This document shows, in pieces, positions 1,036 through 37,130 of a stretch of DNA of 50,000 bases. Each line of letters opens with the position of its first letter. The stretch's first letter is position 1. The position numbers were made by a program, and so were the translations under genes. The notes under the pieces were generated by a model, which saw only the letters and a list, made by a program, of their open reading frames with translations, ran no database searches and was not told the DNA's origin. Source of the DNA: Neocallimastix lanati (nom. inval.) (taxonomy: Eukaryota; Neocallimastigomycota; Neocallimastigomycetes; Neocallimastigales; Neocallimastigaceae); contig JACVTC010000011.1 in assembly GCA_016946835.1 (NCBI GenBank), positions 290,001-340,000 on the forward strand, given 5' to 3'.

Positions 1036-9058
<8,023 letters not shown>

Positions 9059-11224: not shown

Positions 11225-11258
11225 TTTTTATAGGGGAGGTCGAATTACTCCAATTTTC

Positions 11259-11264
11259 ACGTGA
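11259..11264. promoter_or_regulatory. CACGTG palindrome near MULE right end, copy 1
   Basis: CACGTG stands out in otherwise almost G/C-free DNA, 25 bases inside the terminal repeat. The same palindrome lies at 32127-32132 and 32195-32200 in the other two copies, at the equivalent distance from their ends. It could bind a bHLH factor or the transposase; this is inference. Confidence 0.5.
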
Positions 11265-11739
11265 TGTATACAAATATGTGGCTATAGCTATATTATGCTA
11301 CATAATATTATTCTATTGTATTATTTTGTTATTTCAATTTTAATTTAATTATTAAGTGAATAATTAAATAAATCATATAATGATTAGATTTTATGATTTT
11401 AATTCTTTTATTTAAATGTTATTAATAAAAAATTATATAAAAATATAAATGTTATTAATAATATTTTATTAATAAAAAAATTATAAAAATATAAATGTTA
11501 TTAATAATAATTCTTTTATTTAAATATTATTAATAATTCTTTTATTCAAATATTATTAATAATAATTCTTTTATTTAAATGTTATTAATAATTCTTTTGT
11601 TTAAACGTTATTAATAATTCTATTATTTAAATGTTATTAAAAAAATAATTATAATGTTAAAATTATTAACTATACATTGTATTTGAATATTTATTTAAAC
11701 TATATAAATTTAAACTATATAATATTATTTCTATCACAT

Positions 11740-13076
11740 TTAGCATCAATTAACTTGGCTTCAATATTTTTGTAGCGTTCAATTAAGATACTGATTTTAT
11801 TAGCTTTATTTATTGCTCTTTTTTTTATTTTCAAATTCCTTTTATTTTTTTTTTTTTGATAATCATAATATGATAAATGTTCAAGTTCATCCAATTTATC
11901 TATTAATTCAAAAAAGATAATTTTGTTGGAAATAAATTATTTAAATAATTATTGAGTGATTCTGAGGTATTGTTTGTTATATGTTCCATATTATTATAAT
12001 AATTCCAAAACTTCATATTATAATCAATTAAATATGTTTTATAAAAATATTCTAAAAATTTTAAAAATCGACAATAATTATTTTTAATGGATTTAATTTT
12101 AATTATAACATAAATATCAAATATGTATTCAGGATTTATAAATGGTAAATTTGAAATAGCTTTATAATAAATAAATATATTATTATCATTTTTTACTTCA
12201 TTATAGCATAATTTTTTATAATGCCAAATGCAATATTTAATATTTGTATTAGGAAATATTGTTTTTGCTGCTTTAGATATGCCCATTTCAAAATCACAAT
12301 GCAAATTTTTTGGTTCAATTATAATATTATTGTTACATGTATTAGCATTTTTTTTTTAATTTTTAAAATAATATTTTATATGTTTCTTATTCTTTATTTT
12401 TTAATATTGCAAAAGAAGTATTGTAAAAACTATCTAATTCTTTAGCATAAGTTCTTGTAATAAATATTTGATAACTAAATTTAGGGGCAATAAAAAATGT
12501 ACCATCAACAAATATATCATCATTATACTCCCTAAATAATTTTGCTTGAAAAGGGGATTGAAAAATTATTAAATTAGAATTTTTGAATATCATAAAATTT
12601 TCACTTCGTTTTGTTTTATAATACTCAGATTTACTAGGAATCTCAGAAAATGTCGTTACATTGGATGGTAGTTTTTTATTTAAATTTCTTGATATTTGGG
12701 ATTTAATTGAATTATATTCTGGACATATAAATCCCATTTCTTTAGAAATTTTATTATATAGGGGTTTTATTTTTATACCAAAAGGAATAGAGATTTTTTC
12801 AATTCCATCTTTAATTTTATGTTTCATTATAGATAGAGATACATCGTATTCTTTTTCAGGATGATTATGTGAACTATCATATTTTAAGATTTCTTTCTTA
12901 TCATTTAAAATAATAAAAGATTTATATTTATTTATTTTTTAATATTCGGTACATTTATAAACTTTGGAATTATCTTTTCTTAAATATGAAAAATTAAATT
13001 TATATTTTTTATTAATAATAATTTGCTCTTTTCTCTTGTTAGACTCACTTACATCAATAATTAGATTTTCTTCCAT
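11740..13076 (-). pseudogene. MULE transposase pseudogene, copy 1
   Basis: Starting at the ATG complementary to 13074-13076, fragments in several frames show a FLYWCH/WRKY-like N-terminus (a YKC segment and a HNH after about 25 residues). Next come a conserved block ending at FVDGTFF (12387-12827) and a block beginning HCDFEMGISKAA (to about 11903). The VDGTF aspartate, the CDFE aspartate and a glutamate in NNTSES are the likely catalytic DDE triad of the MULE transposase family. In-frame stops lie in the zinc-finger linker, just after LKNKE and before the CDFE block, and the C-terminus (ISILIERYKNIEAKLID) is shifted and truncated near 11740. Compared with copy 2 the stop after LKNKE is a CAA to TAA change. 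It cannot make a full transposase. Confidence 0.85.
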
Positions 13077-13311
13077 TTCTATATTTTTATAAATATTTTT
13101 TAATTATATAATCAAAATTATTATATTAATTATCCAATACTATTCTTAATAATAATTTTGAAAAATTAGTTTTTCAAATAAATAAATAAATAAAGAATGT
13201 AATAAGTATAAGTATATAAAATAAAATAAATTATAATAAAAAAAATAAATATTGAATATAATAATATAAAAGTACAAGTATATAAAATAAAATGAAATAA
13301 ATATTTATTAT

Positions 13312-13523
13312 TTTTTTTTATTAAAGAATATTAAAGACAATTTATTTTTAAAAATAAAATGTCTTATTTAATTATATATGTTAGAAAGCAAAAAAAAAAA
13401 AAATTCATTTATATTTAATGAGATTATTAACAACCAATAATATTAAATTACATCATTGAATAAAAAAAATGTAAAAAATTTTCATTCTAAAACATTGCTC
13501 TTTAATATTCTTTAATAAAAAAT
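13312..13523. repeat. MITE-like inverted-repeat module inside MULE copy 1
   Basis: Both ends read TTTTATTAAAGAATATTAAAG towards the inside, as inverted repeats of about 24 bases. The interior of about 165 bases carries no gene. The same module occurs at about 29340-29580 in MULE copy 3, in the same orientation relative to the transposase, and is absent from copy 2. It may be a small non-autonomous DNA transposon nested in an ancestral MULE, or a hairpin-forming part of the MULE itself. Confidence 0.65.
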
Positions 13524-13570
13524 AAAAATAGATATTTATTTTATTTTATTTTATTTTATTTTATTTTATT

Positions 13571-15046
13571 CAATCTGTACTTTATATTCATATTCTACTA
13601 TTTATTTTATTCAATCTGTACTTTATATTCATATTCTACTATTTATTTTATTCAATCTGTACTTTATATTCATATTCTACTATTTATTTTATTCAATCTG
13701 TACTTTATATTCATATTCTACTATTTATTTTATTCAATCTGTACTTTATATTCATATTCTACTATTTATTTTATTCAATCTGTACTTTATATTCATATTC
13801 TACTATTTATTTTATTCAATCTGTACTTTATATTCATATTCTACTATTTATTTTATTCAATCTGTACTTTATATTCATATTCTACTATTTATTTTATTCA
13901 ATCTGTACTTTATATTCATATTCTACTATTTATTTTATTCAATCTGTACTTTATATTCATATTCTACTATTTATTTTATTCAATCTGTACTTTATATTCA
14001 TATTCTACTATTTATTTTATTCAATCTGTACTTTATATTCATATTCTACTATTTATTTTATTCAATCTGTACTTTATATTCATATTCTACTATTTATTTT
14101 ATTCAATCTGTACTTTATATTCATATTCTACTATTTATTTTATTCAATCTGTACTTTATATTCATATTCTACTATTTATTTTATTCAATCTGTACTTTAT
14201 ATTCATATTCTACTATTTATTTTATTCAATCTGTACTTTATATTCATATTCTACTATTTATTTTATTCAATCTGTACTTTATATTCATATTCTACTATTT
14301 ATTTTATTCAATCTGTACTTTATATTCATATTCTACTATTTATTTTATTCAATCTGTACTTTATATTCATATTCTACTATTTATTTTATTCAATCTGTAC
14401 TTTATATTCATATTCTACTATTTATTTTATTCAATCTGTACTTTATATTCATATTCTACTATTTATTTTATTCAATCTGTACTTTATATTCATATTCTAC
14501 TATTTATTTTATTCAATCTGTACTTTATATTCATATTCTACTATTTATTTTATTCAATCTGTACTTTATATTCATATTCTACTATTTATTTTATTCAATC
14601 TGTACTTTATATTCATATTCTACTATTTATTTTATTCAATCTGTACTTTATATTCATATTCTACTATTTATTTTATTCAATCTGTACTTTATATTCATAT
14701 TCTACTATTTATTTTATTCAATCTGTACTTTATATTCATATTCTACTATTTATTTTATTCAATCTGTACTTTATATTCATATTCTACTATTTATTTTATT
14801 CAATCTGTACTTTATATTCATATTCTACTATTTATTTTATTCAATCTGTACTTTATATTCATATTCTACTATTTATTTTATTCAATCTGTACTTTATATT
14901 CATATTCTACTATTTATTTTATTCAATCTGTACTTTATATTCATATTCTACTATTTATTTTATTCAATCTGTACTTTATATTCATATTCTACTATTTATT
15001 TTATTCAATCTGTACTTTATATTCATATTCTACTATTTATTTTATT
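13571..15046. repeat. 41-bp minisatellite, 36 uniform copies
   Basis: The unit starts CAATCTGTACTTTATATT and ends TATTTATTTTATT. Unit starts at 13571, 13612 and onward to 15006 are spaced by exactly 41 bases, which gives 36 copies with no variant noticed on reading. It lies between the left terminus and the inverted-repeat module of MULE copy 1. In the other MULE copies the same core is separated by variable numbers of TAAAA pentamers, so the strict 41-bp periodicity here looks like a recent expansion of one unit. Confidence 0.95.
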
Positions 15047-15244
15047 TTATTTTATTTTATATACTTATTACATTCTTTATTTATTTATTTATTTATTTAT
15101 TTATACATTTATTTTTTTTTAAATATAATTGTATTAAAATTTTTTATGCCGTTAGTAAAAAATTTTACAAGCCATTAAAAATAAATGGCGTATTAAAAAT
15201 TTATATTTTAAAAATTGGCAAAATGCACCACATTCATTTTTATA

Positions 15245-22484: not shown

Positions 22485-28072
<5,588 letters not shown>

Positions 28073-28351: not shown

Positions 28352-28740
28352 AAATATGTCCAAAAATTATAAAATAAATATTCACTTTTTACTAATATTT
28401 TTATTATATTTAAAGGACTTATTTTTAAAAATATATGATTTATGATTTAATATTTTTAAATTCATAAAATTACATTCAATGGAACATACATATTTTATTA
28501 TATTTTATGCATGCTTTAATAAAAAATTATACAAAAGAACCGAATGTGGTTCATTTCGCCAATTTTTATAATACAAATTTTCAATACGCCATTTATTTTT
28601 AATGGCTTGTAAAATTTTTTGTTGACGCCATAAAAATTTTAATAAAATTATATGTAAAAAAAAATAAATGTATAAATAAATAAACAAACAAATAAATAAA
28701 TAAACAAAGAATGTAATAAGTATATAAAATAAAATAAATA

Positions 28741-29330
28741 GTAGAAATATGAATATAAAGTACAGATTTAATAAAATAAAATAAAATAAATAATTGAAAT
28801 ATGAATATAAAGTACAGATTTAATACAATAAAATAAAATAAAATAAAATAAAATAAAATAAATAGTAGAACTATGAATATAAAGTACAGATTTAATAAAA
28901 TAAAATAAAATAAAATAAAATAAATAGTAGAATATAAATATAAGTACAGATTGAATAAAATAAAATAAATAGTTGAAATATAAATATAAAGTACAAATTG
29001 AATAAAATAAAATAAAATAAAATAAAATAAATAGTAAAAATATGAATATAAAGTACAGATTTAATAAAATAAAATAAAATAAAATATAATAAAATAAAAT
29101 AAATAGTAGAAATATGAATATAAAGTACAGATTTAACAAAATAAAATAAAATAAAATAAAATAAAATAAAATAAATAGTAGAATATTAAATATAAAGTAC
29201 AGATTGAATAAAATAAAATAAAATAAAATAAAATAAATAATAGAATATAAATATAAGTACAGATTGAATAAAATAAAATAAAATAAATAGTTGAAATATA
29301 AATATAAAGTACAGATTGAATAAAATAAAA
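28741..29330 (-). repeat. Minisatellite array, first arm in MULE copy 3
   Basis: Irregular units with core TATAAAGTACAGATT are separated by variable runs of TAAAA. They are the reverse complement of the 41-bp unit of copy 1 and lie in the same orientation relative to the element. Units differ by small substitutions (TTGAAATATGAAT, AGAACTATGAAT, AGAATATAAAT), which suggests an older, less homogenised array. Confidence 0.85.
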
Positions 29331-29339
29331 TAAAATAAA

Positions 29340-29580
29340 TATCTAATAATTTTTTATTAAAGAATATTACAGATCAATGTTTTAGAAATGAAATTTTTTT
29401 ACATTTTTATTGTATTCAATTGATGATGTAATTTAATATATAAAACAATATTATTGATTGTTAATAATCTCATTAAATATAAATGATTTTTTTACTTTCT
29501 AACATATATAATTAAATAAAACATTTTTAAAAATAAATCGTCTTTAATATTCTTTAATAAAAAATAATGATAAATATTTA
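29340..29580. repeat. MITE-like inverted-repeat module in MULE copy 3
   Basis: The ends read TTTTTTATTAAAGAATATTA inward from both sides, and similarity extends outward through AAATAT. It corresponds to 13312-13523 of copy 1. Here it separates two minisatellite arrays of opposite orientation, so 28741-30520 is one large imperfect palindrome with this module at the centre. Confidence 0.65.
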
Positions 29581-29595
29581 TTTTATTTTATATAT

Positions 29596-30520
29596 TAGTA
29601 CTTTTATATTATTATATTCAATATTTATTTTATTTTATTTTATTACTTGTACTTTTATATTATTACATTCAATATTTATTTAATTTTATTTTATTTTATT
29701 TTATTCAATCTGTACTTTATATTTAATATTCTACTATTTATTTTATTTTATTTTATTTTATTTTATTTTATTTTATTTTATTTTATTTTATTTTATTTTA
29801 TTTTATTTTATTTTATTTTATTTTATTTTATTTTATTTTATTTTATTTTATTTTATTTTATTTTATTTATTTTATTTTATTTTATTTTATTTTATTTTAT
29901 TTTATTTTATTTTATTTTATTTTATTTATTTTATTTTATTTTATTTTATTTTATTTTATTTTATTTTATTCAATCTGTACTTTATATTTAATATTCTACT
30001 ATTTATTTTATTTTATTTTATTTTATTTTATTTTATTTTATTTTATTTTATTTTATTTTATTCAATCTGTACTTTATATTCATATTCTACTATTTATTTT
30101 ATTTTATTTTATTCAATCTGTACTTTATATTTAATATTCTACTATTTATTTTATTTTATTTTATTTTATTTTATTTTATTTATTTTATTTTATTTTATTT
30201 TATTTTATTTTATTTATTTTATTTTATTTTATTTTATTTTATTTTATTTTATTTTATTCAATCTGTACTTTATATTTAATATTCTACTATTTATTTTATT
30301 TTATTTTATTTTATTTTATTTTATTTTATTTTATTTTATTTTATTTTATTTTATTTTATTTTATTTTATTTTATTTTATTTTATTTTATTTTATTTTATT
30401 TTATTTTATTTTATTTTATTTTATTTTATTTTATTTTATTTTATTTTATTTTATTTTATTTTATTTTATTTTATTTTATTTTATTTTATTTTATTATATT
30501 TTATTTTATTTTATTTTGTA
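29596..30520 (+). repeat. Minisatellite and (TTTTA)n array, second arm in MULE copy 3
   Basis: Units with core CAATCTGTACTTTATATT (for example at 29706, 29969, 30062, 30116 and 30258) are separated by long perfect TTTTA runs; the final run covers about 30290-30490. The orientation is opposite to the array at 28741-29330. Confidence 0.85.
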
Positions 30521-30674
30521 TACTTGTACTTACTATTACATTATTTATTTATTTATTTTTTTTTTACAAATAATTGAAAAACTAATTTTTCAAAATTAGT
30601 ATTTAGAATAATATTGGATAATTAATATAATAATTTTAATTATATAATTAAAAAATATTTATAAAAATATAGAA

Positions 30675-31720
30675 ATGGAAAAAAATCTTATTATCGATAT
30701 AAGTGAGTCTAACAAAGGAAAAAAATAAATTATTATTAATAAAAAAAATAAATTTAATTTTTCATATATAAGAAAAGATAATTCAAAAGTTTATGTACAG
30801 AAATAAATGTAAATCTTTTATTATTTTAAATGATAAGAAAGAAATCTTAAAATATGATAGTTCACATAATCATCCTGAAAAAGAATACGATGTATCTCTA
30901 TCTATAATGAAACATAAAATTAAAGATGGAATTGAAAAAAAGTTCAATTCCATGGTATAAAAATAAAACCCCTATATAATAAAATTTCTAAGGAAATGTG
31001 ATTTATATGTTCAGAAGATAATTCAATTAAATCCCAAATATCAAGAAATTTAAATAAAAACTACCATCCAATGTAACAACATTTACTGAAATTTCTAATG
31101 AATCTGAATATTATAAAACAAAGTGAGGTGAAAATTTTATGATATTCAAAAAATATTTAATAATTTTTCAATCTCCTTTTCAAGTAAAATTATTTAAGGA
31201 ATATAATGATGATATATTTGTTGATGGTACATTTTTTATTGCCCCTAAATTTAGTTATCAAATATTTATTACAAGAACTTACGCTAAAGAATTAGATAGT
31301 TTTTACACTACTTCTTTTGCAATATTATAAAATAAAGAACAAGAAATATATAAAATATTTAAAAAATTAAAAAAAAAGCTAGTATATGTAACAATAATAT
31401 TATAATTGCAGAATCAATAGTTATTTAAATAATTTATTTCTAACAATACCATCTTATTATAAATTAAAAGATAAATTAAATGAACTTGAACATTTGCCAT
31501 ATTATGATTATCAAAGAAAAATAAGAGGAATTTAGAAAATAAAAAAAAGAGCAATAAATAAAGCTAATGAAATCAGTGTCTTAATTGAACGCTACAAAAA
31601 TATTGAAACCAAGTTAATTGATACTAAATGTGATAGAAATAATACTATTAATTTGTGGTTTGATTGTTTAACTGATTTAAATAATATAATATAAATATTA
31701 TTTTATAATAAAAAATTAAA
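30675..31720 (+). pseudogene. MULE transposase pseudogene, copy 3, internally deleted
   Basis: It begins with an ATG and NLIIDISESNKGKK and reaches a stop after about 17 codons. Later frames show NKCKSFIILNDKK, HNHPEKEYDVSLSIMKHKIKDG, then FVDGTFFIAPKFSYQIF (31139-31330). Near 31410 the sequence jumps from the position of IIIEPKN straight to the NNYLNNLF region, so the CDFE block and about 400 bases present in copies 1 and 2 are missing. The C-terminal RAINKANEISVLIERYKNIE to WFDCL follows. The second catalytic Asp is therefore lost. This is the most decayed of the three copies, although it keeps the zinc-finger Cys that reads Tyr in copies 1 and 2. Confidence 0.8.
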
Positions 31721-32157
31721 AAATGAGGAATAACCAAACGAAATAATCAGAATTCTGTCATTCAAAAATTTAATTTATAAAGCTTATTAAATTTATACAG
31801 TTTAAATAAATATTCAAATACGTCTCTATAATTATTAATTTTATCATTATAACTATTATTTTTTTAATAACATTTAAATAAAAGAATTATTATTAATAAT
31901 ATTTATATTTTTAATAACATTTATATTTTTAATAACATTTATATTTTTATATAATTTTTTTTATTAATAGCATTTAAATAAAAGAATTAAAATCATAAAA
32001 TCTAACCATTATATGATTTATTTAATTATTCACTTAATAATTAATTTAAAATTTGAAATAACAAAATAATACAATAAAATAATATTATGTAGCATAAAAT
32101 ATCTATAGCCACAAATTTATATATATCACGTGAAAATTGGCATAATGTAACCTCCCT

Positions 32158-32166
32158 GGTTCTTTT
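32158..32166. other. 9-bp spacer GGTTCTTTT between the paired MULEs
   Basis: The two elements abut with only nine bases between their right termini. The spacer is the exact reverse complement of the AAAAGAACC found at 28533-28541 and 36252-36260. CACGTG palindromes lie symmetrically on both sides (32127-32132 and 32195-32200), so about 32100-32230 is a long inverted repeat able to form a cruciform. Confidence 0.9.
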
Positions 32167-32569
32167 GGGGAGGTTGCATTACGCCAATTTTTTTCACGTG
32201 ATATATATAAATATGTGGCTATAGCTATATTACCCTACATAATATTATTTTATTTACTTCAATTTTTAAATTAATTATCAAGTGAATAATTAAATAAATC
32301 ATGTAATGGTTTAGATTTTATAATTTTAATTCAAATGTTATTAATAAAAAAATTATATAAAAATATAAATGTTATTAAAAATATAAATGTTATTAATAAT
32401 AATTATTTTATTTAAATGTTATTAAAAAAAATAATAATTATAATGATAAAACTATTAATTATTCATAGTATTTGAATATTTATTTAAACAGTATAAACTT
32501 AATAAGCTTTATAAATTAAATTTTTAAATGACAGAATTCTAAGTATTTCATTTGGTCATTCCTAATTTC

Positions 32570-33990
32570 TTAATTATTTATTATATAAAGTAATATATAT
32601 ATTATATTATTTAAATCAGCTAAACAATCAAACCACAAATTAATAATATTATTTCTATCATATTTAGCATCAATTAACTTGGCTTCAATATTTTTGTAGC
32701 GTTCAATTAAGATACTGATTTCATTAGCTTTATTTATTGCTCTTTTTTTTATTTTCAAATTCCTTTTATTTTTCTTTGATAATCATAATATGATAAATGT
32801 TCAAGTTCATTTAATTTATCTATTAATTCAAAAAAAGATGGTTTTTTTGGAAATAAATTATTTAAATAATTATTGAGTAATTCTGAGGTATTGTTTGTTA
32901 TATGTTCCATATTATTATAATAATTCCAAAATTTCATATCATAATCAATTAAATATGTTTTATAAAAATATTCTAAAAATTTTAAAAATCGACAATAATT
33001 ATTTTTAATGGATTTAATTTTAATTATAACATAAATATCAAATATGTATTCAGGATTTATAAATGGTAAATTTGAAATAGCTTTATAATAAATAAATATA
33101 TTATTATCATTTTTTACTTCATTATAGCATAATTTTTTATAATGCCAAATGCAATATTTAATATTTGTATTAAGAAATATTGTTTTTGCTGCTTTAGATA
33201 TGCCCATTTCAAAATCACAATGCAAATTTTTTGGTTCAATTATAATATTATTGTTACATGTATTAGCATTTTTTTTTTAATTTTTAAAATAATATTTTAT
33301 AAGTTTCTTGTTCTTTATTTTTTAATATTGCAAAAGAAGTATTGTAAAAACTATCTAATTCTTTAGCATAAGTTCTTGTAATAAATATTTGATAACTAAA
33401 TTTAGGGGCAATAAAAAATGTACCATCAACAAATATATCATCATTATACTCCCTAAATAATTTTGCTTGAAAAGGGGATTGAAAAATTATTAAATTAAAA
33501 TTTTTGAATATCATAAAATTTTTACCTCGCTTTGTTTTATAATATTCAGATTCACTAGGAATTTCAGAAAATGTTGTTACATTAGATGATAGTTTTTTTA
33601 ATTAAATTTCTTGATATTTGGGATTTAATTGAATTATATTCTGGACATATAAATCCCATTTCTTTAGAAATTTTATTATATAGGGGTTTTATTTTTATAC
33701 CAAAAGGAATAGAGATTTTTTCAATTCCATCTTTAATTTTATGTTTCATTATAGATAGAGATACATCGTATTCTTTTTCAGGATGATTATGTGAACTATC
33801 ATATTTTAAGATTTCATTCTTATCATTTAAAATAATAAAAGATTTATATTTATTTATTTTTTAATATTCGGTACATTTATAAACTTTGGAATTATCTTTT
33901 CTTATATATAAAAAATTAAATTTATATTTTTTATTAATAATAATTTGCTCTTTTCCTTTGTTAGACTCACTTACATCAATAATTAAAAAT
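32570..33990 (-). pseudogene. MULE transposase pseudogene, copy 2
   Basis: On the minus strand the frames give HNHPEKEYDVSLSIM, the FVDGTFFIAPKF block (33284-33514), HCDFEMGISKAAKTIF to YYDYQRKIKGI (32755-33225) and RAINKANEISILIERY to WFDCLADLNNII (32570-32758). The CAA codon after LKNKE is intact here, unlike copy 1, and the VDGTF Asp, CDFE Asp and NNTSE Glu are all retained. Frameshifts near 33595, 33280 and 32760 and a stop in the zinc-finger linker still break it, and the first codons, including the ATG, are deleted. It is the best preserved of the three transposase relics. Confidence 0.85.
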
Positions 33991-34081
33991 TATTATATTA
34001 ATTATATAATATTATTCTTAATATTAATTTTGAAAATTAGTTTTTCAATTATTTAAAAAATAAATAAAGAATGTAATAATA

Positions 34082-36010
34082 TAAGTACAAATATATAAAA
34101 TAAAATAAACAGTAGAATATTAAATATAAGTACAGATTGAATAAAATAAAATAAAATAAAATAAAAATAAATAGTCGAAATATGAATATAAAGTACAGAT
34201 TGAATAAAATAGAAGAAAATAAAATAAAATAAAATAGAAGAAAATAAAATAAAATAAATAGTAGAATATGAATATAAAGTACAGATTGAATAAAATAAAA
34301 ATAAAATAAAAATAAATAGTAGAATATGAATATAAAGTACAGATTGAATAAAATAAGATAAAATAAAACAAAATAAAATATAATAAAACAAAACAAAATG
34401 AATAGTTGAAATATAAAGTATAGATTGAATAAAATAAAATAAAATAAATAGTAGAATATGAATATAAAGTACAGATTGAATAAAATAAAATAAAATAAAA
34501 TAAATAGTAGAATATGAATATAAAGTACAGATTGAATAAAATAAAATAAAATAAAATAAAATAAAATAAAATAAAATAAAATAAAATAAAATAAAATAAA
34601 TAGTAGAATATAAATATAAAGTACAGATTGAATAAAATAAAATAAAATAAAATAAAATAAAATAAAATAAAATAAAATAAAATAAAATAAAATAAAATAA
34701 AATAAAATAAAATAAAATAAAATAAAATAAAATAAAATAAAATAAATAGTAGAATATAAATATAAAGTACAGATTGAATAAAATAAAATAAAATAAAATA
34801 AAATAAAATAAAATAAATAGTAGAATATAAATATAAAGTACAGATTGAATAAAATAAAATAAAATAAAATAAAATAAAATAAAATAAATAGTAGAATATA
34901 AATATAAAGTACAGATTGAATAAAATAAAATAAAATAAAATAAAATAAAATAAAATAAAATAAAATAAAATAAAATAAAATAAAATAAAATAAAATAAAA
35001 TAAAATAAAATAAAATAAATAGTAGAATATAAATATAAAGTACAGATTGAATAAAATAAAATAAAATAAAATAAAATAAAATAAAATAAAATAAAATAAA
35101 ATAGAAGAAAATAAAATAAAATAAATAGTAGAATATGAATATAAAGTACAGATTGAATAAAATAAAATAAAATAAAATAAATAGTAGAATATGAATATAA
35201 AGTACAGATTGAATAAAATAAAATAAAATAAAATAAATAGTAGAATATGAATATAAAGTACAGATTGAATAAAATAAAATAAAATAAAATAAAATAAAAT
35301 AAATAGTAGAATATTAAATATAAAGTACAGATTGAATAAAATAAAATAAAATAAAATAAAATAAAATAAAATAAAATAAAATAAAATAAAATAAAATAAA
35401 ATAAAATAAAATAAAATAAAATAAAATAAAATAAAATAAAATAAAATAAAATAAAATAAAATAAAATAAAATAAAATAAAATAAAATAAAATAAAATAAA
35501 ATAAAATAAAATAAAATAAAATAAAATAAAATAAAATAAAATAAAATAAAATAAAATAAAATAAAATAAAATAAAATAAAATAAAATAAAATAAAATAAA
35601 TAAAATAAAATAAAATAAAATAAAATAAATAAATAAAATAAATAGTAGAATATAAATATAAAGTACAGATTGAATAAAATAAAATAAAATAAAATAAAAT
35701 AAAATAAAATAAAATAAAATAAAATAAAATAAAATAAAATAAATAGTAGAAAATAAATATAAAGTACAGATTGAATAAAATAAAATAAAATAAAATAAAA
35801 TAAAATAAAATAAATTAAAATAAAATAAAATAAATAGTAGAATATAAATATAAAGTACAGATTGAATAAAATAAAATAAAATAAAATAAAATAAAATAAA
35901 ATAAAATAAAATAAAATAAATAGTAGAATATGAATATAAAGTACAGATTGAATAAAATAAAATAAAATAAAATAAAATAAAATAAAATAAAATAAAATAA
36001 AATAAAATAA
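34082..36010 (-). repeat. Minisatellite and (TAAAA)n array in MULE copy 2
   Basis: About twenty units with core TATAAAGTACAGATTGAAT are separated by variable perfect AAAAT runs, the longest from about 35332 to 35610. A variant unit at 34371-34440, with ACAAAACAAAATG and AGTATAGATTG, is the one shared with kinase intron 7. The poly-FYFIL-type frames here are not genes. Confidence 0.9.
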
Positions 36011-36462
36011 ATATCTATTACTTGTACTTTTATATTATTACAATCAATATTTATTTTATTTTATTTTATTTTATTTTATTTTATATACTTAAATTATTAC
36101 ATTCTTTATTTATTTATTTATACATTTATTTTTTTTACATATAATTGTATTAAAATTTTTTATAGCGTTAATAAAAAATTTTACAAGCCATTAAAAATAA
36201 ATGGCGTATTGAAAATTTATATTTTAAAAATTGGCGAAATGCGCCACATTCAAAAGAACCTTATAAAAAATTTTTAAATTATATTATTTGTATCATAAAC
36301 TACATAAACTATATATATTATTATTATATGATTTATTTATTTATTTATTTATTTATTTGTAACACACTACTTAATATTTAAAATTATAATAAAAATAAAA
36401 GTATTAATTAAAATGTTAATTAAAAATTTAAACTAAAAATACTATTTTTCTAACATTCTCCC

Positions 36463-37130
36463 ATAAACAAGGTATTGTTAAAGACTCTGTTTGCAAAATC
36501 AGTTATTTGATTTTTATTAGTATCTTTCATTAAAATATTAGTTAAATTTTTTTTCAGATTTAATATAATGGAAAATTACATCTTTTCTTTCAATATTCTC
36601 CTTGAAGTAATGATAGCTAACTCAAACATAACAAAGTTTCATACTAATAACTAAATTTTCAGCAGCAAATAAGGATGCTCTGTTGTCTCTAGTTAAGTTT
36701 ATTACAAATTTCTTTTTTAATATTTTATTAAGCATATTTTTATCCTTAAATAATTTACTACAGCTTCAAAAAGAGCAATGTATTCTGTTTGTTACCTATT
36801 GTTGCTGTTTTGACATTCAAGCGATTGGTTCTGAAGCTAAGATAAAGATATTTCTTGAGGTTGGTTTGCAATTTGATAAATTTCTTGCAAAATTAAAATC
36901 TGTATAGCAAGCTGATTTCTATGCTTTAATATGAAACATAACAATTTTTAGTTTGATTTTAATATTTGAGAATATTAGCTACCTTGTTCCCATTTGATGT
37001 TGTTGGATTTATTTTTTTTTTCTTGATACTTTGCTAAAGAAGGAAGATATATCTGATCTTGTTGATTTAGATATGTTTATTATATAGTCAACTGAGTTCT
37101 ATGAATGATTATCTCGGATATCTTTATATA
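36463..37130 (-). pseudogene. Copia pol relic: RT end and RNase H
   Basis: Read on the minus strand, the region follows the copia order: RPDISFA-like motif (TRSDIS at about 37060), NPTTSNGNKVANIL (matching the NP...HW..v.RIL block), YTDFNFARNLSNCKPTS, ASEPIA-MSKQQ, EAVVNYLRIKNMLNKIL, DNRASLFAAENLV, then YHYFKENIERKDVIFHYIK and NLTNILMK. Stops and shifts break it repeatedly, so it is non-functional. The plus-strand ORF 36683-36907 is its shadow. Confidence 0.8.

What the first reader, a model, noticed from the sequence alone, without database searches (positions are those of the whole stretch)
28533..36260. Inverted MULE pair with direct outer 9-mers and a reverse-complement central 9-mer
Outer flanks are AAAAGAACC (28533-28541 and 36252-36260), a direct repeat as expected for a target duplication. 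The nine bases between the two right ends are GGTTCTTTT, its exact reverse complement. Neither arm alone has a direct duplication. A simple history fits: one MULE inserted with AAAAGAACC; a second inserted in opposite orientation into the same 9-mer, giving three direct copies; then homologous recombination between the inverted arms flipped the interior, turning the central copy into its reverse complement. That would record two insertions and one inversion. Independent origin of all three 9-mers is unlikely.
Basis: partly seen in the sequence, partly recalled or inferred. Interest (0 to 1): 0.85.

Follow-up and report, generated by a model that had tools for sequence, protein, structure and literature searches.

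The report
Two jumping genes, flipped palindrome tip
Two related jumping genes landed one after the other, in opposite directions, in the same nine-letter spot of a nuclear genome, and a tiny segment where they meet then flipped over, leaving the middle copy of the nine letters reversed; the parts are known, but the whole history can be read with unusual clarity.

Summary
AAAAGAACC flanks an inverted MULE pair, and its reverse complement sits between the arms. Most single copies examined carry ordinary 9-bp duplications, so the boundaries are right and the 9-mer is not part of the terminus. Four of four fetched paralogous empty sites have one direct 9-mer between joined flanks. The arms come from different lineages: the left is a young deletion derivative, 99% like a copy elsewhere; the right is older. 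One self-duplicating element is therefore excluded. The interior was inverted, but not by wholesale exchange between the long arms: lineage markers keep their place to within about 45 bp of the centre. The left tip carries three changes absent from its relatives, and T-run lengths at the two tips look swapped. This puts both breakpoints in one 22-bp shared block and makes the inversion 54-98 bp long, a microinversion at a hairpin tip. A second tail-to-tail pair elsewhere shows the same inverted inner flanks. Two of two close pairs found are flipped. The kind is known (exchanged duplications at transposon inversions; hairpin microinversions); scale and placement are unusual.

The parts
28533..28541 (+). 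outer left 9-mer AAAAGAACC (target duplication)
   Evidence: paralogous empty sites have one AAAAGAGGC here
28542..32157 (-). left arm: young non-autonomous MULE of lineage A (inner end at 32157); lacks about 355 bp of the transposase region that the right arm keeps
   Evidence: 99% to C35:1002092-1005197; gap between matches; tree
32115..32136 (.). left breakpoint interval of the inferred microinversion (shared 22-bp block)
   Evidence: block list (left 22-43); lineage markers
32137..32157 (.). left inner tip with three transitions not seen in its relatives; inferred to have come from the right-hand element
32158..32166 (-). central 9-mer, read GGTTCTTTT on +, inverted relative to the outer copies; the 9-base loop of the predicted hairpin
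32167..32190 (.). right inner tip, unmutated, followed by a T run of 7 as in the left element's closest relatives; inferred to have come from the left-hand element
32191..32212 (.). right breakpoint interval of the inferred microinversion (shared 22-bp block)
   Evidence: right 25-46
32167..36251 (+). right arm: older MULE of the lineage that includes the third window copy; transposase frame broken into pieces
36252..36260 (+). outer right 9-mer AAAAGAACC
11233..15235 (+). third, single copy of the family with normal 9-bp duplication ATTTTTATA (boundary control)
36261..37100 (+). right flank: part of a repeat, 78-80% like 17 other copies over some 770-850 bp; one paralog carries a Copia-type reverse transcriptase frame beside it

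Best explanation
An older MULE (right arm) inserted into a repeat and duplicated AAAAGAACC. Much later a young, non-autonomous MULE of another lineage (left arm) inserted in the opposite direction into the left copy of that same 9-mer, giving three direct copies and a tail-to-tail palindrome with a 9-base loop. A segment of 54-98 bp at the palindrome centre (the two inner tips plus the 9-mer) then inverted, with both breakpoints in a 22-bp block shared by the two tips. Shown: two lineages, normal 9-bp duplications elsewhere in the family, one direct 9-mer in paralogous empty sites, inverted centre. Supported but not proved: exchange of the tips. Inferred: the order of insertion and the machinery. 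I think the flip arose through the hairpin or cruciform at the centre (double template switch, or break repair by microhomology-mediated break-induced replication) rather than through long-homology crossing over.
For: Three 9-mers exactly at boundaries. Normal perfect duplications in 7 of 10 single copies: third copy, C35, and 5 of 8 others. Empty sites: L022-L025, 4 of 4 fetched, run through the site with one AAAAGAGGC. Lineages: the left arm groups with C35 and 7 other copies (terminal branch 0.003); the right arm groups with the third copy (0.029). Tip exchange: in the first 1598 bp the left arm differs from C35 by substitutions at 1, 10, 16, 236, 408 and 410 only. Against its 8-copy clade 10, 16 and 236 were scored as private, and position 1 is read; P about 4e-6 for 3 of 4 in the first 16 bp. 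This tip is unique in the genome at up to 1 mismatch. T runs: left 4, as in THIRD, L061, L062 and L013; right 7, as in L027, L029 and L030. Lineage markers resume at left 44 and right 47. Hairpin with exactly the 9-mer as loop: -48.6 kcal/mol, z -16. Second pair C1:3113917-3117562: TATATTTAC-[element]-ATTTTTTTT-spacer-GTAAATATA-[element]-AAAAAAAAT, i.e. both inner flanks inverted.
Against: The tip exchange rests on three substitutions plus a variable T run (within the left clade L034 and L032 also have 4 T, L028 has 6). The P value is post hoc: the 16-bp span was chosen after seeing the changes. Position 236 was compared with only one clade member, and position 1 also differs in L031. The first lineage marker (left 44 / right 47) is a single base; a second follows at about left 57. 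The right tip has no private changes, but only about 0.5 would be expected in 46 bp (21 in 1890 sites). Mutation concentrated at the palindrome tip after it formed would mimic the left-tip evidence. The paralogous empty sites differ from the 9-mer at 2 of 9 bases. No reads, sister strains or alleles were available; the joined-flank pattern at up to 3 mismatches is absent from this assembly, so no true empty allele was seen.
Confidence: 0.8

Rival explanations
1. Two insertions into one 9-mer, then ordinary homologous recombination between the long inverted arms flipped the interior.
For: Arms are 93.8% identical at 1503 aligned inner sites, gaps left out, and identical blocks of 80 and 100 bp exist. 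It yields the same 9-mer pattern.
Against: A crossover deep in the arms would swap lineage identity from that point to the centre. The left arm stays with its lineage from position 44 outward, and the right arm from 47. The only interval left is a 22-bp block, below the 50-250 bp minimum for recombination in eukaryotes cited in PMC8755829 (passages seen).
Confidence: 0.1
2. One element transposed replicatively into its own flanking duplication (adjacent inversion, as in Shapiro-type intramolecular transposition), producing two inverted copies and an inverted central 9-mer in one step.
For: The predicted anatomy is identical (reasoned from the known model, recalled), and the C1 pair also fits it.
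Against: The arms belong to separate lineages; the left arm's nearest relative is C35 at 99%, not the right arm.
Confidence: 0.03
3. A variant of the best explanation, not exclusive of it: the flip happened during the second insertion itself. While the 9-base gap between two inverted tips was being filled, repair switched strands inside the palindrome.
For: The left arm outside its tip has almost no private changes in its first 1598 bp, so the flip is recent. Breakpoints lie near the gap. Both close tail-to-tail pairs found are flipped.
Against: No intermediate seen; two cases also fit a later, reversible flip at 50:50.
Confidence: 0.2
4. Assembly artefact (palindromic long read or collapsed copies).
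For: Palindromic joins are a known long-read fault (recalled); the arms hold long AAAAT-type arrays.
Against: A read-through palindrome would give identical arms; these differ by lineage and length, and the flanks match paralogous empty sites on both sides.
Confidence: 0.04
5. The composite of both arms moved here as one large transposon, and the central 9-mer resembles the duplication by chance or by target preference.
For: The outer 9-mers are a normal direct pair.
Against: Chance about 3e-6; 0 of 49 other flanking 9-mers equal it or its complement.
Confidence: 0.01

Closest known systems
Galileo transposon inversion 2z3 of Drosophila buzzatii (PMC2775673, abstract and passages seen)
   Same: Two copies in opposite orientation, exchanged target duplications and chimeric copies, taken there as evidence of inversion by recombination between transposons
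   Different: There the two copies lie at the two breakpoints of a chromosomal inversion; here the inverted piece is 54-98 bp, the two elements share one 9-mer, and only the tips appear exchanged
Chimeric Galileo copies of D. mojavensis with non-matching 7-bp flanks (PMC3573991, passages seen)
   Same: Copies made of two subfamilies without a matching direct duplication, put down to ectopic recombination or conversion
   Different: Single dispersed copies; no paired element, no inverted central duplication in the passages seen
Hairpin-associated microinversions (human/chimpanzee, PMC8755829, abstract and passages seen; chloroplast small inversions, PMC12371153, passages seen)
   Same: A short segment between inverted repeats is cleanly inverted, and the flanking repeats may be imperfect
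   Different: Reported sizes are 17-33 bp and 4-50 bp, here 54-98 bp; here the repeat is made by two transposon tips and the loop is a target duplication, so ancestral orientation and breakpoints can be read
Double insertions of P elements in inverted orientation at one target (singed-weak; recalled; no listed paper held that term)
   Same: Two elements of one family inserted at one duplicated target
   Different: Class of element; I cannot cite an inverted central duplication for it
Mutator-like elements (MuDR/MULE)
   Same: 9-bp duplications, terminal inverted repeats, MULE transposase domain
   Different: Ordinary member; the pair, not the element, is the finding

Membership tests
Mutator-like elements (MULE) | MULE-type transposase | tested here: met
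   Open 470-aa frame in copy L009: PF10551 MULE E 2.7e-12, PF04500 FLYWCH E 3.6e-8. The right arm's 156-aa fragment is weak: E 0.0057, below the curated cut-off
Mutator-like elements (MULE) | 9-bp target site duplication | tested here: met
   Third copy and C35; 5 of 8 further copies perfect
Mutator-like elements (MULE) | terminal inverted repeats | tested here: met
   The two end patterns share G.....G.TGCATT.CGCCAATTTT; short and imperfect at the outermost bases
Transposon-mediated inversion by recombination (Galileo type) | two copies in opposite orientation | tested here: met
Transposon-mediated inversion by recombination (Galileo type) | exchanged target duplications | tested here: met
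   Each arm has inverted rather than direct flanks; same in L057
Transposon-mediated inversion by recombination (Galileo type) | both copies chimeric at the crossover | tested here: inconclusive
   Left tip looks of other history; right tip only by T-run length
Hairpin-associated microinversion | short clean inversion flanked by inverted repeats that reach its edges | tested here: met
   Breakpoint block 22 bp, hairpin z -16; size 54-98 bp is above the ranges in the papers seen
Replicative adjacent inversion | two copies of the same element | tested here: not met
   Different lineages
Two-isomer inversion in populations | both orientations present | not testable with these tools
   No reads or sister strains

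The most novel reading that the evidence does not exclude
Insertion of a MULE into the duplicated target of an older MULE creates a near-perfect palindrome whose 9-base loop is inverted during or right after gap filling, as a regular by-product of such insertions; tail-to-tail pairs in this genome would then carry inverted inner duplications as a rule, a built-in marker of hairpin repair in the host.
Probability: 0.2. Interest if true: 0.6.

Novelty: new variant of a known kind. Interest (0 to 1): 0.42.

Why it matters
Hairpin-tip inversions are hard to polarise because the ancestral orientation of the loop is usually unknown. Here the loop is a target duplication, whose orientation is fixed by the two outer copies and by paralogous empty sites, and the two stems come from distinguishable lineages, so direction, breakpoints and relative age can be read from one genome. 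Genomes rich in inverted transposon pairs could be screened the same way to measure how often, and by what repair route, short palindromes flip. It also warns that a missing direct duplication does not mean that an element failed to insert normally.

Tried and rejected
Wholesale arm exchange: rejected by lineage markers. Self-duplication: rejected by the tree. GGTTCTTTT as part of the terminus, or a target preference for it: 0 of 49 inner-end 9-mers (matches at up to 5 mismatches, a few of them doubtful ends; the window pair's own loci left out). C246 (L056) was fetched as a possible further pair, but it is a copy broken up by other MULE-like sequence with no clean inner ends: uninformative. 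Head-to-head pairs: the first pattern was too narrow and found 0; the wider one found 4 places. Of these, L064 and L066 had no recognisable MULE ends and L063 had only one. L065 is a pair of unlike families; its right element seems to have a normal direct duplication TTAAAATAT (at 1518 and 2711; the 9-mer also occurs at 1970), so no sign of a flip where the tips share little sequence. A list of 155 inner ends (typed from the capped list and, plus the left arm's; one search counts 287) gave no further tail-to-tail pair nearer than 23 kb; that distant pair (C755) was not tested. True empty allele by pattern: none. Literature: the listings (10 of 254; 10 of 285) showed no title on MULEs in anaerobic fungi; those (15 of 57; 7 of 7; 10 of 10; 8 of 114; 10 of 727) showed no title on a flipped target duplication between two MULEs. 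Beyond listings I saw only passages of PMC3573991, PMC12371153, PMC8755829 and PMC2775673.
Full report
The window is bases 290001-340000 of contig 13 of a 199-Mb, 762-contig genome. GC is 7-26% in 2-kb steps along the window, and it holds eukaryotic-type genes (a protein kinase, a GMPPB-like protein). By recall this looks like an anaerobic gut fungus; I did not test that.

Observation. AAAAGAACC is present at 28533-28541 and 36252-36260, and as GGTTCTTTT at 32158-32166, and nowhere else in the window. Each lies exactly at an element boundary. The element ends are defined by other copies: the single copy at 11233-15235 begins GGGGAGGT and ends CCACATTC, with ATTTTTATA on both sides; C35:1002092-1005197 has AAAAATATT on both sides (L027 and L058). 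Of 8 further single copies with both ends in view, 5 have perfect 9-bp duplications, one differs at 2 bases and two do not match. The family is large: 287 inner-end and 416 outer-end matches at up to 3 mismatches (100 of each listed). It is a Mutator-like family: a 470-aa open frame in L009 matches the MULE transposase domain (E 2.7e-12) and a FLYWCH finger.

What was there before. The right flank belongs to a repeat: 17 other places match at 78-80% over some 770-850 bp, and others are shorter or more diverged. The neighbouring frame in L024 is a Copia-type reverse transcriptase (RVT_2). I had four paralogs (L022-L025). All four run through the insertion point, with homologous sequence on both sides and one 9-mer, AAAAGAGGC, in the orientation of the outer copies. 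For L024 the left-flank alignment scores 133, against at most 72.5 for 100 random window stretches. So the ancestral site most likely had one direct 9-mer, and two were added, one per insertion. The empty-site 9-mer differs from AAAAGAACC at 2 of 9 bases.

Two elements, two ages. The left arm's inner 1598 bp is 99% identical to C35; 39 places outside the pair match it at 93-99%, 34 of them over 1500 bp or more (40 candidates scored). The right arm's matches that span nearly its whole 1894-bp query are 88-89%; partial ones reach 90-93% from query base 152 or 158 onward. In a tree of 54 inner regions (51 loci, the two arms and the third copy) the left arm falls in a tight clade with L027-L034, and the right arm pairs with the window's third copy. 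Terminal branches are 0.003 and 0.029. The arms are 93.8% identical at 1503 aligned inner sites, gaps left out, or 85-87% with gaps counted, and the left arm lacks about 355 bp of the transposase region. The two arms are therefore separate insertions, the left one young. This rules out the one-step alternative, replicative transposition of one element into its own flank, although that model predicts the same anatomy.

Where the flip happened. If recombination deep in the arms had flipped the interior, lineage identity would switch at the crossover. It does not: the left arm carries its own lineage's base at 44 (and again from about 57 outward), and the right arm its own at 47. The left tip is different. 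Against C35 there are 30 substitutions in 3080 aligned sites; 24 lie in the tandem arrays beyond 1598, none in the outermost 200 bp, and the six in the first 1598 bp are at 1, 10, 16, 236, 408 and 410. Against the 8-copy clade only 10, 16 and 236 were scored as private (at 236 only one clade member had a base). The alignment did not cover position 1, where one search shows G in the relatives except L031. The chance that 3 of 4 private changes fall in the first 16 bp is about 4e-6, a post hoc figure. All three tip changes are G>A or C>T, and this tip occurs once in the genome at up to 1 mismatch. The T run at 22-28 also looks swapped: 4 in the left arm, as in the right arm's relatives THIRD, L061, L062 and L013; 7 in the right arm, as in L027, L029 and L030. 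The run varies in length (L034 and L032 have 4, L028 has 6), so it is supporting evidence only. The simplest reading is that the older element's decayed tip now sits on the young element and the reverse. The breakpoints then lie in the shared block left 22-43 / right 25-46, window 32115-32136 and 32191-32212, and the inverted segment is 54-98 bp. Longer identical blocks (44, 80 and 100 bp among them) lie deeper in the arms and were not used.

Mechanism. The centre folds into a hairpin with the 9-mer as its loop (z -16). PMC8755829 (abstract and passages seen) reports microinversions of 17-33 bp, all flanked by inverted repeats, cites 50-250 bp as the minimum homology for recombination in eukaryotes, notes that template switching tends to make imperfect repeats perfect, and proposes break repair by microhomology-mediated break-induced replication. 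Here the mismatches between the tips were kept and, on my reading, exchanged, not erased, which fits the second route or a double switch better than a single switch. The machinery is inferred.

A second case. C1:3113917-3117562 reads TATATTTAC-[3.35-kb element]-ATTTTTTTT-33 bp-GTAAATATA-[244-bp element]-AAAAAAAAT (L057). Each inner 9-mer is the reverse complement of the outer one on the far side: two insertions with duplications TATATTTAC and AAAAAAAAT, and the interior inverted. The tips are nearly identical there, so breakpoints cannot be placed, and replicative transposition is not excluded for that pair. Exact-pattern searches for tail-to-tail tips with 2-63 bases between the pattern halves found only these two places, so 2 of 2 are flipped; decayed tips would be missed. 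A head-to-head pair of unlike families (L065) seems to have a normal duplication on its right element.

Why the same 9-mer. Of 47 inner ends, 7 (in 6 loci; L057 counts twice and L017 is a tandem tip duplication) have a MULE-tip-like motif within 120 bp outside, against 19 of 2000 random 120-bp stretches of this window. MULEs here may tend to land next to MULE tips, which would make re-use of a flanking 9-mer less surprising. The control comes from one window only, and some motif hits may not be real tips.

Compared with what is known. [quoted passage not shown] The first two are met here; the third is fair for the left tip and weak for the right. I file this as a new variant of a known kind.

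Noticed in passing
13560-15046: Inside the third MULE copy, 36.3 copies of a 41-bp unit at 100% match: a recent or homogenised satellite made from the family's internal repeat, although the copy itself has a long terminal branch (0.09).
   Followed up: no
28700-29340, 29580-30520, 34060-36010: The same spacer unit (TACAGATTGAATAAAATAAA... with AAAAT runs) forms long arrays in both arms, differing in length and arrangement.
   Followed up: partly
L017 (C14:290379 and 290430): The first 51 bp of a MULE tip are duplicated in tandem, giving two nested candidate ends.
   Followed up: no
L049, L055 (and probably L037): Tips of a different MULE-like family (GGGGGAGGAGCATTTCG type) lie directly against or within about 12 bp of inner ends of this family, suggesting insertion preference for MULE ends.
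   Followed up: partly
L009:1775-3184 (-): A 470-aa open MULE+FLYWCH frame in a copy with perfect 9-bp duplication GATATGCGG: a candidate source of transposase for deleted copies such as the left arm.
   Followed up: partly
4598-4846: 83 TTA repeats at 100% match.
   Followed up: no
24944-25541: 1.9 copies of a 309-bp tandem unit, 78% matches, overlapping or between two frames without Pfam hits.
   Followed up: no
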